Below are positions 35,062-54,114 of a stretch of DNA of 64,000 nt, one piece after another. Position numbers and translations under genes: made by a program. The stretch is taken from positions 1,426,001-1,490,000 of the forward strand of contig CP036201.1 in the NCBI GenBank assembly GCA_004299845.1, given 5' to 3'. Under the pieces are notes generated by a model. That model was given only the letters and a program-made list of their open reading frames with translations. It did no database searches and was not told the origin of the DNA. This DNA is from Verrucomicrobia bacterium S94. Its GTDB lineage: Bacteria; Verrucomicrobiota; Kiritimatiellia; Kiritimatiellales; Pontiellaceae. Position 1 is the first letter of the stretch, and the number at the start of each line of letters is the position of its first letter.

Positions 35062-35132
35062 CCTCGCAGAGCCGCAGAGAACGAAGAGTAATGTATTCTG
35101 TTTGCCTCAGCGCACTCTGCGCCTCTGCGAGG
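35062..35132. repeat. Extragenic CGCAGAG hairpin repeat between guaA and carB
   Basis: Left arm CCTCGCAGAGCCGCAGAG (35062-35079) and right arm CTCTGCGCCTCTGCGAGG (35115-35132) are complementary at 17 of 18 positions, with a 35-base loop. The arms contain the same CGCAGAG/CTCTGCG words as the sequences flanking the IS110-type element at 52063-52938. Confidence 0.8.
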
Positions 35133-50870: not shown

Positions 50871-51827
50871 CTACTTTGCCAGAGAAGGTTTCCAGTACTT
50901 TCCGCGCCCGCGGCACACTTCGCGCCGGAATTCAACCGGGGATTGGCCGGTATTCTTTTTGAACTGCCGCGAAAAACGCGGATAGTTGCTGTAGCCCACC
51001 TGATAACAGATTTCCAGTGCATTATCGGAACTGTCGCGCAACAGTTCACAGGCCTTACGAATGCGCAGACCGTTAAGATAATTCATGAACGTGGAACCGG
51101 TTTCATTTTTAAACAATCTGCAGAAATAAGGTTCCGCCGTACCGCACATACGGGCCATGGCTTCCAACGTCAGTTCCTCATCATAATGATCGTGAATATA
51201 GTTGAGCACCGCCCGCAGTCCCTGCATGCATTTCGATACCGAAACACTGACCTCCTGTTTCACCGTTCGCCGGCTCTCCAGCGCACGGTCATGCTGTTCC
51301 GACATCAGCGCCATCAGTTCCAGAAAATAAAAACGGCACAGGGCGTGGCTCTTTTCCGAGGAAGTATGCGAATGGACTTTGAGCAGTTCAAGAACGTGTT
51401 CCATGGATTGCCGCACTTCCCGCGCAAGCTCCATTTTCACGGCCGCTGATTCTTTCTCCACCAGCGACATCAGTGATTTAAAGTAGTAGACATTCGGAGA
51501 CTCCGACTGCTGAAGCATTTCCAATGACTGGATATTCAGATCCACCGCCTGCGGCAGGAAGCTGCAGAAATAGGAACAGCAGACCGCCTTTTCCTGATCG
51601 TCCAGCCTATGGAGCACATAGGGCTTGATAATGAGAATCTCTCCCTGCTTCAGGATTTCCGTCCGGCTTTTAAACCGACAGACCAGCGATCCTTTTTTCA
51701 CGTAAAGGAACTCGAAATATTCATGGCGGTGCAGCTCGTCGATCCGCAGTTCACGGTCTTCCACCCGGTCCACGTGCACCGGGAAAGACAACGCATCGAA
51801 TATCGCACCTGATTGTACCAGACTCAT
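50871..51827 (-). CDS. AraC-family transcriptional regulator
   Basis: An N-terminal cupin-like sensing domain (residues about 15-100, ELHRHEYFEFLYVKKGSLVCRF, LIIKPYVLHRL) is followed by a long helical linker and a C-terminal double HTH (LRAVLNYIHDHYDEELTLEAMA, EPYFCRLFKNETGSTFMNYL, ALEICYQVGYSNYPRFSRQFKKNTGQSP). The effector is probably a sugar released by the neighbouring sulfatase or lyase products. The ATG at 51827 has an AAGGAG site; an upstream frame to 51893 does not. It lies between the sulfatase pair and the sugar operon starting at 53089. Confidence 0.92.
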   Translation of the reverse strand: MSLVQSGAIFDALSFPVHVDRVEDRELRIDELHRHEYFEFLYVKKGSLVCRFKSRTEILKQGEILIIKPYVLHRLDDQEKAVCCSYFCSFLPQAVDLNIQSLEMLQQSESPNVYYFKSLMSLVEKESAAVKMELAREVRQSMEHVLELLKVHSHTSSEKSHALCRFYFLELMALMSEQHDRALESRRTVKQEVSVSVSKCMQGLRAVLNYIHDHYDEELTLEAMARMCGTAEPYFCRLFKNETGSTFMNYLNGLRIRKACELLRDSSDNALEICYQVGYSNYPRFSRQFKKNTGQSPVEFRREVCRGRGKYWKPSLAK

Positions 51828-52062
51828 TATACACTCCTTAGGTCCAACACTGCACCCCTCATCCGGCAGGATGAAAACAGAGGATAATCCCAAAAGGCGC
51901 TACTCGTCAGCTGAATAGGCAGATATTTTTTTGAAATCCGCTGAACACCGGTTTATTCCGTAGAAAAAACCTCGCAGGATTTCGCTCCCCGGCACATGAA
52001 TTTTCCGACCCAACCTCTGATACCATTTACTAAAAAATTCCGGTCTTAACGACAGCGTTATT

Positions 52063-52081
52063 CCGCGCAGCGACGCAGAGC
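52063..52081. repeat. Left arm of an extragenic palindrome split by the IS110-type element
   Basis: CCGCGCAGCGACGCAGAG (about 52063-52080) is the inverse of the arm found 830 bases away at 52910-52938 (CTCTGCGTCCTCGGCGCCTCTGCGCGGG), apart from an 8-base deletion. The two together resemble the intact hairpin at 35062-35132. Confidence 0.6.
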
Positions 52082-52088
52082 AACTGTG

Positions 52089-52589
52089 TCATAACTCAAC
52101 CTTTATTTCTGCTTTTCTAAGTTCGGACTGCATGTGGATGAGCATTTTCCTCATCCCTGCGACCATTGCACATTTATAGGGTTTCCCGCGCGATTGGAGT
52201 CCATCGGTATAGGCTTTGATTACAGGATTATACATCGCTGCAGTTCCGGTCGCCATATACAGCGCTTTTCTGACCTTCGCACGCCCGCTTTTGATTTTTC
52301 GCTTTCCTTTAAATCTGCCGCTGTCTCTGTTGTAGGGGGCAACGCCGGCGAGAGCAACGAGTTCATTTCTGCTGAGCATCGTGATTTCACCGAGGAAGGC
52401 CATGATCATCCATGCGCTAACTTCGCCAACGCCTTTGATGGCAGTGAGACAGGATAAACAGGCCGACAGACTCTCATCGGAGTTGATCAGTTCCCGGATG
52501 CGCTTCTCAATGGCTGTGATTTCTTTTTTCAGGACATCCAGCGATTCTTTGCTAACGTCAACCGCAATCAGGGTTAATTCATGTTTCAT
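52089..52589 (-). pseudogene. IS110-family transposase with DEDD domain deleted
   Basis: The first residues (LTLIAVDVSKESLDV) are the start of the IS110 DEDD (RuvC-like) domain. They are joined directly to a coiled-coil (LKKEITAIEKRIRELI) and an intact C-terminal Transposase_20 domain with TAIKGVGEVSAWMIMAFLGEI, ALAGVAPYNRDSGRFKGKR, KVRKALYMATGTAAMYNP and MRKMLIHMQSELRK. At 166 residues it is about half of a normal IS110 transposase, so three of the four acidic catalytic residues should be missing. The deletion keeps the frame. It can probably move only if an intact copy acts in trans. ATG at 52589 has a GGAG site. Confidence 0.85.
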
Positions 52590-52652
52590 GGTTTTTCTCC
52601 GTCTTGTAGAGGTGAGCTCAAAAGGCTCTGTCAACTGTTTGAGATAAAACCG

Positions 52653-52859
52653 GAGCAGCTTCGGAGGATCCCTGCTCTGCGATGAACGCTGCCTCCGGCA
52701 GGTTCTGGACGCAGAATGATCTCTTCCGAAACCCCGCCGAGCTTTTCGTCAAAAGCCCGGCGGTTCCCTGGTGCTCCTGAGCTTACTTAACTGAGGAGCT
52801 TTTTTCCTCCCCTTTCTCCGACGAGTAATGGTTCCCATTCTCGAAAGGGGAAAAAGCTC
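52653..52859 (-). ncRNA. Candidate bridge RNA of the IS110-type element
   Basis: Four hairpins occupy the region: 52653-52677 (GAGCAG/CTGCTC), 52685-52705 (GAAC-CTGCC/GGCAG-GTTC), 52734-52763 (12 of 13 pairs around loop CGTC) and 52796-52859 (64 bases with GAGCTTTTT outer and AATGG/CCATT inner stems). The two unpaired sides around hairpin 52685-52705 read, on the minus strand, TCTGCGTCC (52715-52707) and CGCAGAGCA (52681-52673). Both 9-base strings are found in the flanking palindrome arms (52911-52919 and 52074-52082). A loop with one guide on each side of a terminal hairpin is the architecture described for IS110 bridge RNAs. Transcription is not proven. Confidence 0.5.
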
Positions 52860-52909
52860 AAATGATGTCGGGAGAAACCTACAAGGCGCAGCCGTTTATG
52901 ACTGAATTT

Positions 52910-52938
52910 CTCTGCGTCCTCGGCGCCTCTGCGCGGGA
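52910..52938. repeat. Right arm of the split extragenic palindrome
   Basis: CTCTGCGTCCTCGGCGCCTC continued by TGCGCGGG is the counterpart of the arm at 52063-52081. The words CTCTGCG and CGCCTCTGCG recur in the repeat at 35115-35132. Confidence 0.6.
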
Positions 52939-52961
52939 TCAAATTTATACCGGATAGTTTT

Positions 52962-52981
52962 AACGTTTGGTATGAAACGTT
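52962..52981. promoter_or_regulatory. Candidate operator of the sugar operon
   Basis: AACGTTT-GGTATG-AAACGTT is a perfect 7-bp inverted repeat 108 bases upstream of the symporter gene, in otherwise AT-rich promoter-like DNA. A third AAACG word (GCAAACGTAAA) lies about 30 bases upstream of the gene. The form suits a LacI- or GntR-type dimer; the AraC regulator at 50871 is another candidate. The rest of 52939-53088 holds no gene. Confidence 0.45.
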
Positions 52982-53088
52982 CCGCTTTTGCGGACAAGTA
53001 CAATAAGCGCATATTAAATTACAAGATCAGCTATGTTTCCTTCTTTTTCTGTGTGCAAACGTAAATCTGTCAATCTGCTGGAGAAACA

Positions 53089-54114
53089 ATGAGTGAACTG
53101 ATGCTACCCATTTTTATAATTATTCTGGCCAGTATTTTCCAGGGTACCTTCGGCCTCGGAATGAAATACGTTAAACCGCTGTCCTGGGAGGCATGGTGGA
53201 TCGTGCATGCCACAGTTGCCATGGTATTCTTCCCGCTCATCTGGGCATTAATGGTTGTTCCTGATCTGGGAACCGTGCTTGCCCAAGCCCCTGCCAATGA
53301 AATTTTCTCCGGCGCGGCTCTGGGATTCGGCTGGGGAATCGGCGGAATCATGTTCGGTGTTTCCGTTGGCTATATTGGGATGTCACTCACCTACGGCATT
53401 GTCATGGGACTCTGTTCTATTGCCGGAGCACTGGTTCCGTTTTTTCTCCGTTTTGATTCCATTAACAAAGACGGTATTCCTTTCATTCTCGCGGGCCTTA
53501 CTTTGCTGGCAGTTGCGGTCTTCATTGTGACCCTCGCCGGTCTGAAACGCGATAAAGCGTTGGCCGAAGCCGGTGGCGAAATACGGGGAATTAAGAAAGG
53601 GAAAGAATTCAAACTCGGCCTGCTCATCGCATCTGTCAGTGGAATCCTCTCTGCGATGCTGGCCATCGGTTTTGACAATACCATGGAAATCGGGAAACTG
53701 GCTGAAAAAGCCGGTGCACTGCAGCGCAACACCGCTCTGGCCCGCTGGGTGGTTGTACTGGCCGGAGCCTATCTTATGAATGCCGGCTATGCTCTGTTCC
53801 TTCTGTTCAAAAACAAATCCTTTTCCTCTTTTAAATCGCCCGGCATGTTTAAAGCCCTTAAATGGTCTGTTATCGCCGGTCTACTCTGGTTTGCCGCTCT
53901 CGGAACCTATGGTCAGGGTGTTGCTCTAATGGGAAAAATCGGAACGATGATCTGCTGGCCTGTGATGCTCGGCCTTTCTTTAATCGTCAGCAATATTGCT
54001 GCAATTATTACCGGCGAATGGAAAGGCATGAAAGGGCCGTTTCAAATCATGCTCGGCGGCGTCATGGTCATTATTGCAGCTACCGTGGTTATGACCTATG
54101 CATCGACTCTTTAA
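53089..54114 (+). CDS. RhaT-family L-rhamnose/sugar-proton symporter
   Basis: Ten-helix permease of the RhaT/DMT type, 341 residues. It has the N-terminal LASIFQGTFGLGMKYVKPLSWEAWW, a glycine-rich GFGWGIGGIMFGVSVGYIGMSLTYG and paired helices to the end. RhaT proteins import 6-deoxyhexoses; in this operon the cargo is more likely the sugar or sugar acid processed by the downstream enzymes. First gene of the five-gene operon, with GGAG 6 bases before the ATG. Confidence 0.85.
   Translation: MSELMLPIFIIILASIFQGTFGLGMKYVKPLSWEAWWIVHATVAMVFFPLIWALMVVPDLGTVLAQAPANEIFSGAALGFGWGIGGIMFGVSVGYIGMSLTYGIVMGLCSIAGALVPFFLRFDSINKDGIPFILAGLTLLAVAVFIVTLAGLKRDKALAEAGGEIRGIKKGKEFKLGLLIASVSGILSAMLAIGFDNTMEIGKLAEKAGALQRNTALARWVVVLAGAYLMNAGYALFLLFKNKSFSSFKSPGMFKALKWSVIAGLLWFAALGTYGQGVALMGKIGTMICWPVMLGLSLIVSNIAAIITGEWKGMKGPFQIMLGGVMVIIAATVVMTYASTL

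What the first reader, a model, noticed from the sequence alone, without database searches (positions are those of the whole stretch)
52063..52938. Deleted IS110 element whose putative bridge RNA matches the palindrome it sits in
Seen: a transposase lacking most of the DEDD domain, an intact 275-base structured non-coding region upstream of it, and hairpin-repeat arms on both sides. On the minus strand, the two unpaired segments bracketing hairpin 52685-52705 contain TCTGCGTCC and CGCAGAGCA, and both 9-mers occur in the flanks (52911-52919, 52074-52082). Known: IS110 recombinases use a bridge RNA with paired guide segments in a loop, encoded 5' of the transposase in the IS110 group, and IS110-type elements often insert into REP-like palindromes. 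Inference: this is a non-autonomous, RNA-guided element that targets the genome's CGCAGAG palindromes and may be moved by a full-length relative.
Basis: partly seen in the sequence, partly recalled or inferred. Interest (0 to 1): 0.8.

Follow-up and report, generated by a model that had tools for sequence, protein, structure and literature searches.

The report
Crippled RNA-guided jumping gene in repeat
A damaged mobile element in a bacterium keeps the guide RNA that would steer it into a short repeat, intact sister copies sit in the same repeat, and the sisters carry two versions of the guide that fit different arms of that repeat.

Summary
Window 52081-52883 is an 803-base deletion derivative of a 1232-base IS110-group element, inserted at a CT core in a MITE-like repeat of about 150 bases (52021-52972). 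Nine further copies or remnants were found in the genome, three with intact recombinase genes (IS621 relatives); all ten lie in or join this repeat family. The non-coding region reads as a bridge RNA: right guide CGCAGAG matches the insertion site, and ACAGTTG and CTACAAG match the element's own abutted ends.

Two bases of the right 9-mer are the element's own end. In the predicted fold the two guides pair with each other. The window protein lacks three of four DEDD residues; movement in trans is unshown, and this deletion was found once.

New: in 228 shared non-coding bases only two positions separate A,G,H from C,D,E,F, both in the 9-base left guide. Guide 1 fits better at 25 of 27 arm-1 sites, guide 2 at 7 of 10 arm-2 sites (3 ties). 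Copies sit in the matching arm (4 of 4, 3 of 3), but E, F and G pair poorly in register. Natural retargeting is plausible, not proven.

The parts
52021..52972 (.). MITE-like repeat (about 150 bases when empty, TACCATTT..GTTTGGTA) that hosts the insertion; TGA on both outer sides (52018-52020, 52973-52975)
   Evidence: Read; flanks rejoined in a script align end to end with 35 fetched repeat loci
52081..52883 (-). IS110-group element, deletion derivative (803 of 1232 bases), between two CT cores
   Evidence: Alignment with copies C, D, E, F
52884..52885 (-). left CT core (junction of target GCTGCGC with element end TGTAGG)
52079..52080 (-). right CT core (junction of element end ACAGTTG with target CTGCG)
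52796..52859 (-). 5' stem-loop of the bridge-RNA region; GAGAAT..GTCGGA is shared with other IS110 types of the genus
52660..52731 (-). target-binding loop: stem, left guide, hairpin, right guide
   Evidence: folds; alignment of seven NCRs
52707..52715 (-). left target guide TCTGCGTCC (allele 2); copies C, D, E, F carry TCAGCGCCC
52675..52681 (-). right target guide CGCAGAG, reverse complement of core plus right target CTCTGCG
52590..52651 (-). donor-binding loop; ACAGTTG (52632-52638) and CTACAAG (52603-52609) match the abutted element ends ACAGTTG-CT-TGTAG
52089..52589 (-). in-frame deleted recombinase gene, 166 aa; keeps the first D of DEDD and the serine region, lacks E, D, D

Best explanation
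The window holds a recombinase-dead but otherwise complete IS110-group element. Its non-coding region encodes a bridge RNA whose target loop recognises a half-site (left target, CT, CTGCG) of a MITE-like repeat and whose donor loop recognises the element's own abutted ends. It entered a pre-existing repeat in arm 2 by recombination at a CT core and, before or after, lost 429 nt of the recombinase gene. The family carries two natural left-guide alleles in this genome, TCAGCGC and TCTGCGT, which on average fit opposite arms of the repeat; the window copy carries the second. Because its ends and guide region are intact, an intact sister could in principle supply recombinase in trans. Shown by sequence: anatomy, ends, cores, site, guide alleles, protein loss. 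Inferred: RNA expression, pairing in the cell, that the guide causes the site preference, and trans-mobilisation.
For: The recombinase of intact copy C matches IS621 transposase 8wt6 (E 6e-29) and ISCro4 (E 4e-28) and both Pfam IS110 domains. Rejoining the flanks of seven copies restores the repeat with one shared CT. Right guide matches core plus right target at 7 of 7 in A, B, C, D, F, G, H, I and at 6 of 7 in E; donor-loop strings match the abutted ends. Over five element types of the genus, left guides match their own left targets better than under any other assignment (27.3 matches against a mean of 14.0, rank 1 of 120 permutations; two of the five types have near-identical guides and targets). 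The only two group-separating positions in 228 shared NCR bases, 171 and 175, lie in the 9-nt left guide (two random positions would both land there with probability 0.0014, a post hoc figure). Guide 1 fits better at 25 of 27 arm-1 sites, guide 2 at 7 of 10 arm-2 sites with 3 ties, in 34 empty repeats. Guide-1 copies are in arm 1 (4 of 4), guide-2 copies in arm 2 (3 of 3, counting G by its left flank).
Against: E and F (guide 1) sit one repeat unit upstream and pair only 1 of 7 in register (5 of 7 with a one-base shift, by eye); E leaves a 7-of-7 guide-1 left target unused beside it; G pairs 2 of 7 in register. The window copy's own guide scores 5.5 at its site and also 5.5 in the other arm. 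The last guide base is C where the core has T. E and F share a rare left-flank variant and may not be independent, which weakens the 4-against-3 split (1 in 35 at best, my arithmetic). The window's two guides pair with each other in the minimum-energy fold. The RNAalifold covariation term is +0.76, unsupportive; 4 of 31 pairs have two-sided changes. No bridge-RNA match in Rfam. No expression data.
Confidence: 0.8

Rival explanations
1. The window copy is simply a decaying IS110 remnant: its insertion was guide-directed when the element was whole, and the deleted copy does nothing now. (Compatible with the anatomy and the guide reading above; it denies only present activity.)
For: Its deletion form was found once. 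The other arm-2 places B, G, H, I and the L094 remnant are also truncated. Its protein lacks E, D, D, each reported essential in IS621 (passages).
Against: Both ends, cores and the whole guide region are intact, and outside the guide it has one private substitution, position 831.
Confidence: 0.55
2. The two guide alleles are drift or gene conversion, not retargeting: the guide took the repeat's own 9-mer TCTGCGTCC, or the changes are neutral, and the arm split is an accident of few copies.
For: TCTGCGTCC is an exact 9-mer of the repeat. Only seven copies carry a guide; E, F and G pair poorly in register. Repeats with and without an arm-2 site do not differ in divergence (p 0.50), so I have no cause for a switch.
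Against: The two changes are the only group-separating ones and each allele fits one arm better across 34 empty repeats.
Confidence: 0.35
3. Target choice is set by the protein or by DNA secondary structure of the palindrome, and the guide matches are coincidental.
For: The target is palindromic; in E, F and G the left guide pairs poorly in register.
Against: Left guides track targets across element types of the genus; right-guide and donor matches as well.
Confidence: 0.05

Closest known systems
IS621 (IS110 group, E. coli)
   Same: Homologous DEDD plus serine recombinase; CT core; upstream non-coding region with target and donor loops; left guide of 7 target bases plus core; inserts in repeated palindromes, and its natural guide differs by one base from its usual natural target (passage)
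   Different: Target is a MITE-like repeat with usable sites in two opposite arms; last left-guide base is C, not T; extra hairpins in the 5' region; two guide alleles among copies in one genome
ISEc21 and other seekRNA elements
   Same: IS110-type element ISEc21 has an upstream non-coding region that is needed for movement and can act in trans (passages)
   Different: Sequences not compared here
REP-targeting IS elements (ISPsy8, ISPa11, ISPpu9, ISPpu10, ISRm19, ISRm22)
   Same: Insertion into repeated extragenic palindromes (abstract of PMC1525189)
   Different: Host repeat here has MITE-like ends; these elements were not aligned here
Four other IS110-type elements in the genus (nine copies in G002; L115 in G002; L101 in G025; L049 in G014)
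   Same: Same loop layout, shared 5' stem-loop motif, left guides that match their own targets at 4 to 7 of 7
   Different: Recombinase 37-40% identical where aligned; different targets

Membership tests
IS110 family, IS110 group | DEDD/RuvC domain plus Transposase_20 domain with serine | tested here: met
   Intact copy C: PF01548 and PF02371 over cut-off. The window copy itself has only PF02371; most of its DEDD domain is deleted
IS110 family, IS110 group | Long non-coding region 5' of the gene, short 3' end | tested here: met
   297 nt from the left end through the ATG; 8 nt between stop codon and right core
IS110 family, IS110 group | CT core at both ends, no target duplication beyond the core | tested here: met
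   Seven copies with rejoined flanks
IS110 family, IS110 group | Bridge RNA target loop matching the insertion site | tested here: met
   Right guide 7 of 7 in A, B, C, D, F, G, H, I and 6 of 7 in E; left guide in register D 7, C 6, H 6, A 5, G 2, E 1, F 1 of 7, so met for four of seven copies on the left side
IS110 family, IS110 group | Bridge RNA donor loop matching the abutted ends | tested here: met
   ACAGTTG and CTACAAG in the loop; ends ACAGTTG-CT-TGTAG
IS110 family, IS110 group | Expressed RNA that binds the recombinase and is needed for recombination | not testable with these tools
   No RNA data or assay
IS110 family, IS110 group | Conserved RNA secondary structure with covariation | tested here: inconclusive
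   31 pairs predicted, 4 with two-sided changes, covariation term +0.76 on seven sequences
MITE (host repeat) | Short, multi-copy, terminal inverted repeats, short target duplication, no gene, partner transposase | tested here: inconclusive
   43 matches in the own genome, split copies included, with 40 of 62 candidates scored; about 150 bases with imperfect TACC..GGTA ends; 3-base TNA flank repeats read by eye (TGA/TGA at the window copy) with exceptions such as L061, L066 and L070; no partner transposase was sought
Non-autonomous IS110 element | Defective recombinase, intact ends, evidence of movement in trans | tested here: inconclusive
   Defective gene and intact ends met; only one place with this deleted form found

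The most novel reading that the evidence does not exclude
Within one genome an IS110 family has naturally reprogrammed its bridge RNA: a two-base change confined to the left target guide moved it between the two opposite-strand half-sites of one MITE-like repeat, while the element ends stayed the same. The deleted window copy persists as a guide cassette whose RNA could redirect the intact sister recombinases in trans, and two remnants (G, H) keep a target loop without a donor loop.
Probability: 0.25. Interest if true: 0.7.

Novelty: new member of a known kind. Interest (0 to 1): 0.45.

Why it matters
Bridge RNAs can be reprogrammed in the laboratory and differ between elements. How guides change in nature is less clear; one paper raised near-identical versions of one IS with different targets only as a possibility and did not find it (PMC11187229 section 13, read). 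Here nearly identical copies in one genome differ in the guide, with a two-arm target whose sites can be counted, so natural retargeting can be tested directly with two guide alleles, two 14-base targets and one intact recombinase. My paper searches listed no report of this (terms: IS110 with bridge RNA; with REP and palindrom; with non-autonomous; with retarget and guide; with MITE and nested; bridge RNA with target-binding loop, natural, evolution; seekRNA; Pontiella with insertion sequence). I saw listings only for all but four papers, and the library lacks most subscription journals and all bioRxiv-only work.

Tried and rejected
Rfam 15 over 51800-53100 gave one chance snoRNA match (E 0.94, 18.4 bits against a cut-off of 48) and no bridge RNA. 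RNAalifold on seven NCRs gave no useful covariation support. The idea that the guide switch followed loss of arm-2 sites in younger repeats was tested by repeat divergence and not supported (p 0.50). Strict guide-target covariation copy by copy was considered and rejected: E and F carry guide 1 but sit at a TCTGCGTC-CT site, and G sits out of register. The idea that arm-2 elements are uniformly older was dropped: G (26 per kb) and H (31) differ most from the consensus but are short, I has 7.0 and A 7.5, and full-length D has 8.9. The genome-contig search with the recombinase found two partial relatives, one in Pontiella sulfatireligans F21 and one in a Kiritimatiellae MAG. No second genome with the whole element was found among the 27 other genus genomes held; 8 of those 27 gave partial matches. 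Searches of the own genome score a capped number of candidates (40 of 61, 40 of 62), so further small remnants or repeats may exist. Not done: custom covariance model, structure prediction, metagenome or viral scans, promoter analysis of the abutted ends.

Full report
What is there. On the minus strand of the window, 52081-52883 is an IS110-group insertion sequence reduced from 1232 to 803 bases by one in-frame deletion of 429 nt in the recombinase gene. It sits between CT cores at 52884-52885 and 52079-52080, inside a repeat whose two halves flank it (52021-52972). The repeat has imperfect inverted ends (TACC..GGTA), is about 150 bases long when empty, and has a TGA on both outer sides here. 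Thirty-five other loci of it were fetched from the same genome; one of them (L094) carries a remnant of the element's right end and 34 carry no element sequence. In the genus, 13 of the 27 other genomes held also gave matches to the repeat, many of them short or weak.

Copies. Ten places with element sequence were found in the 4.1-Mb genome: C, D and E with intact genes (309 codons from the ATG), F frameshifted, B truncated on the left, A the window copy, G, H and I reduced to the left part of the non-coding region, and the L094 remnant. The searches scored a capped number of candidates (40 of 61), so small remnants may be missing. All ten are in or joined to this repeat. For seven (A, C, D, E, F, H, I) the flanks were rejoined in a script and gave one repeat with a single CT at the junction. 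G has two flanks of the same arm type, so its host repeat is chimeric. B and L094 have lost one junction by deletion.

Family. The recombinase of copy C matches IS621 (8wt6, E 6e-29) and ISCro4 (9t56, E 4e-28) in the PDB sequence set and both Pfam IS110 domains. In the window copy the first D of DEDD and the serine region remain; the E and the two later D are gone. In IS621 mutation of any one of these residues abolished recombination (PMC11208158, passages seen), so the window protein is very probably inactive.

Guide RNA. The region from the left end to the start codon folds better than 200 shuffles in the window copy (z -5.5) and in copy C (z -4.8). It shows a 5' stem-loop, further hairpins, a loop in which two segments flank a hairpin, and a second loop before the gene. 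By comparison with IS621 (PMC11208160 sections 6, 7 and 12, read; PMC11208158 passages) the first loop holds the target guides and the second the donor guides. In the minimum-energy fold of the window copy the two target guides pair with each other. The right guide CGCAGAG is the reverse complement of CT-CTGCG at the insertion point; it matches 7 of 7 in A, B, C, D, F, G, H and I and 6 of 7 in E. The donor loop contains ACAGTTG and CTACAAG, matching the abutted ends ACAGTTG-CT-TGTAG. The left guide is TCTGCGT-CC in A, G and H and TCAGCGC-CC in C, D, E and F; B, I and L094 have lost it. The register was set by eye from the relatives, where the guide ends in CT just before the hairpin; in the window family the last base is C instead of T.

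Independent check of the pairing model. Four other IS110 types in the genus were read by eye. Left-guide matches to the 7 bases left of the core: L049 7, L101 6, L115 5, and seven G002 rows 4 to 7 (L103 and L105 were left out because they share long flanks with L100). In the window family: D 7, C 6, H 6, A 5, G 2, E 1, F 1. Averaged within families, true pairings rank first of 120 permutations (27.3 matches against a mean of 14.0). L101 and the G002 copies have near-identical guides and targets, so the five types are not fully independent. RNAalifold on seven sequences predicted 31 pairs, 4 with two-sided changes, with an unfavourable covariation term of +0.76.

Two guide alleles. In the 228-nt stretch shared with the shorter copies, 13 columns vary and only positions 171 and 175 separate A,G,H from C,D,E,F; both lie in the 9-nt left guide. 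Two random positions would both fall there with probability 0.0014, a post hoc figure. Among 34 empty repeats (L094 left out) a usable arm-1 site was found in 27 and an arm-2 site in 10, the cut-off being at least 5.5 of 7 left-target matches for either guide, a CT core and at least 4 of 5 on the right. Guide 1 fits better at 25 of 27 arm-1 sites (1 tie, 1 for guide 2); guide 2 fits better at 7 of 10 arm-2 sites (3 ties, none for guide 1). Guide-1 copies are in arm 1 (4 of 4); guide-2 copies are in arm 2 (3 of 3, G by its left flank). Against this: the window copy's guide scores the same in both arms of its own repeat; E and F use a site one repeat unit upstream that fits guide 2 better with a one-base shift, E while a 7-of-7 guide-1 left target lies beside it; and E and F share a rare flank variant, so they may not be independent. 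Retargeting is therefore a reasonable reading, not a demonstrated one.

Deletions. G, H and I keep a precise left end and jump from inside the non-coding region to the right-target core. H and I share 3-4 bases (GCT, GCTC) across the junction; for G I saw none. Such precise right breakpoints hint at failed recombinase reactions at the right junction, but short-homology deletion is enough for H and I. G and H keep the target loop and have lost the donor loop.

Verdict on the finding. The left-guide 9-mer it quoted lies in the other arm, two bases of the right 9-mer are the element's own end, the guides are not predicted to be unpaired, and movement in trans is not shown. As a type of element it is known; the guide-allele split within one genome is the part worth an experiment.

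Noticed in passing
L044 and L052 (G018), L046 (G008), L047 (G012), about 1500-1530 in each: The 28-nt hairpin GAGAATGGGAACCATTACTCGTCGGAG of the bridge-RNA 5' stem-loop recurs at 93-100% identity in other genomes of the genus with no relative of the recombinase found in these loci. Two of the places adjoin ORFs that look like IS3-type integrases by eye (not tested). In the own genome all 8 matches with up to 3 mismatches lie in copies of this element.
   Followed up: partly
L043 (G001:C7), about 1501-1628: A non-coding-region remnant of a related IS110 (83% over 129 columns) in another species, with no recombinase relative found in the locus.
   Followed up: no
window 35062-35131: A second, unoccupied palindromic repeat with the target-like string TCTGCGCCTCTGCG (C1:1461116-1461129), not in the repeat list.
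   Followed up: no
G002 (L100, L107 against L109, L111-L114): Another IS110 type of the genus also has two guide versions in one genome (left TCGCGCA with right CCTGGAG; left TGCCGCA with right TCTGGAG), inserted in GC-rich palindromes; here the two groups also differ elsewhere by about 5%.
   Followed up: partly
L094 and L036 (copy G): A repeat with a short right-end remnant of the element, and a repeat with two copies of the same arm type: signs of rearrangement inside the palindrome.
   Followed up: no
G000:C1 near 10246, 2344745, 2701255, 3198226: Four further IS110-type recombinase genes over the Pfam cut-off, outside this element family, in the same genome; their guides and targets were not examined.
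   Followed up: no
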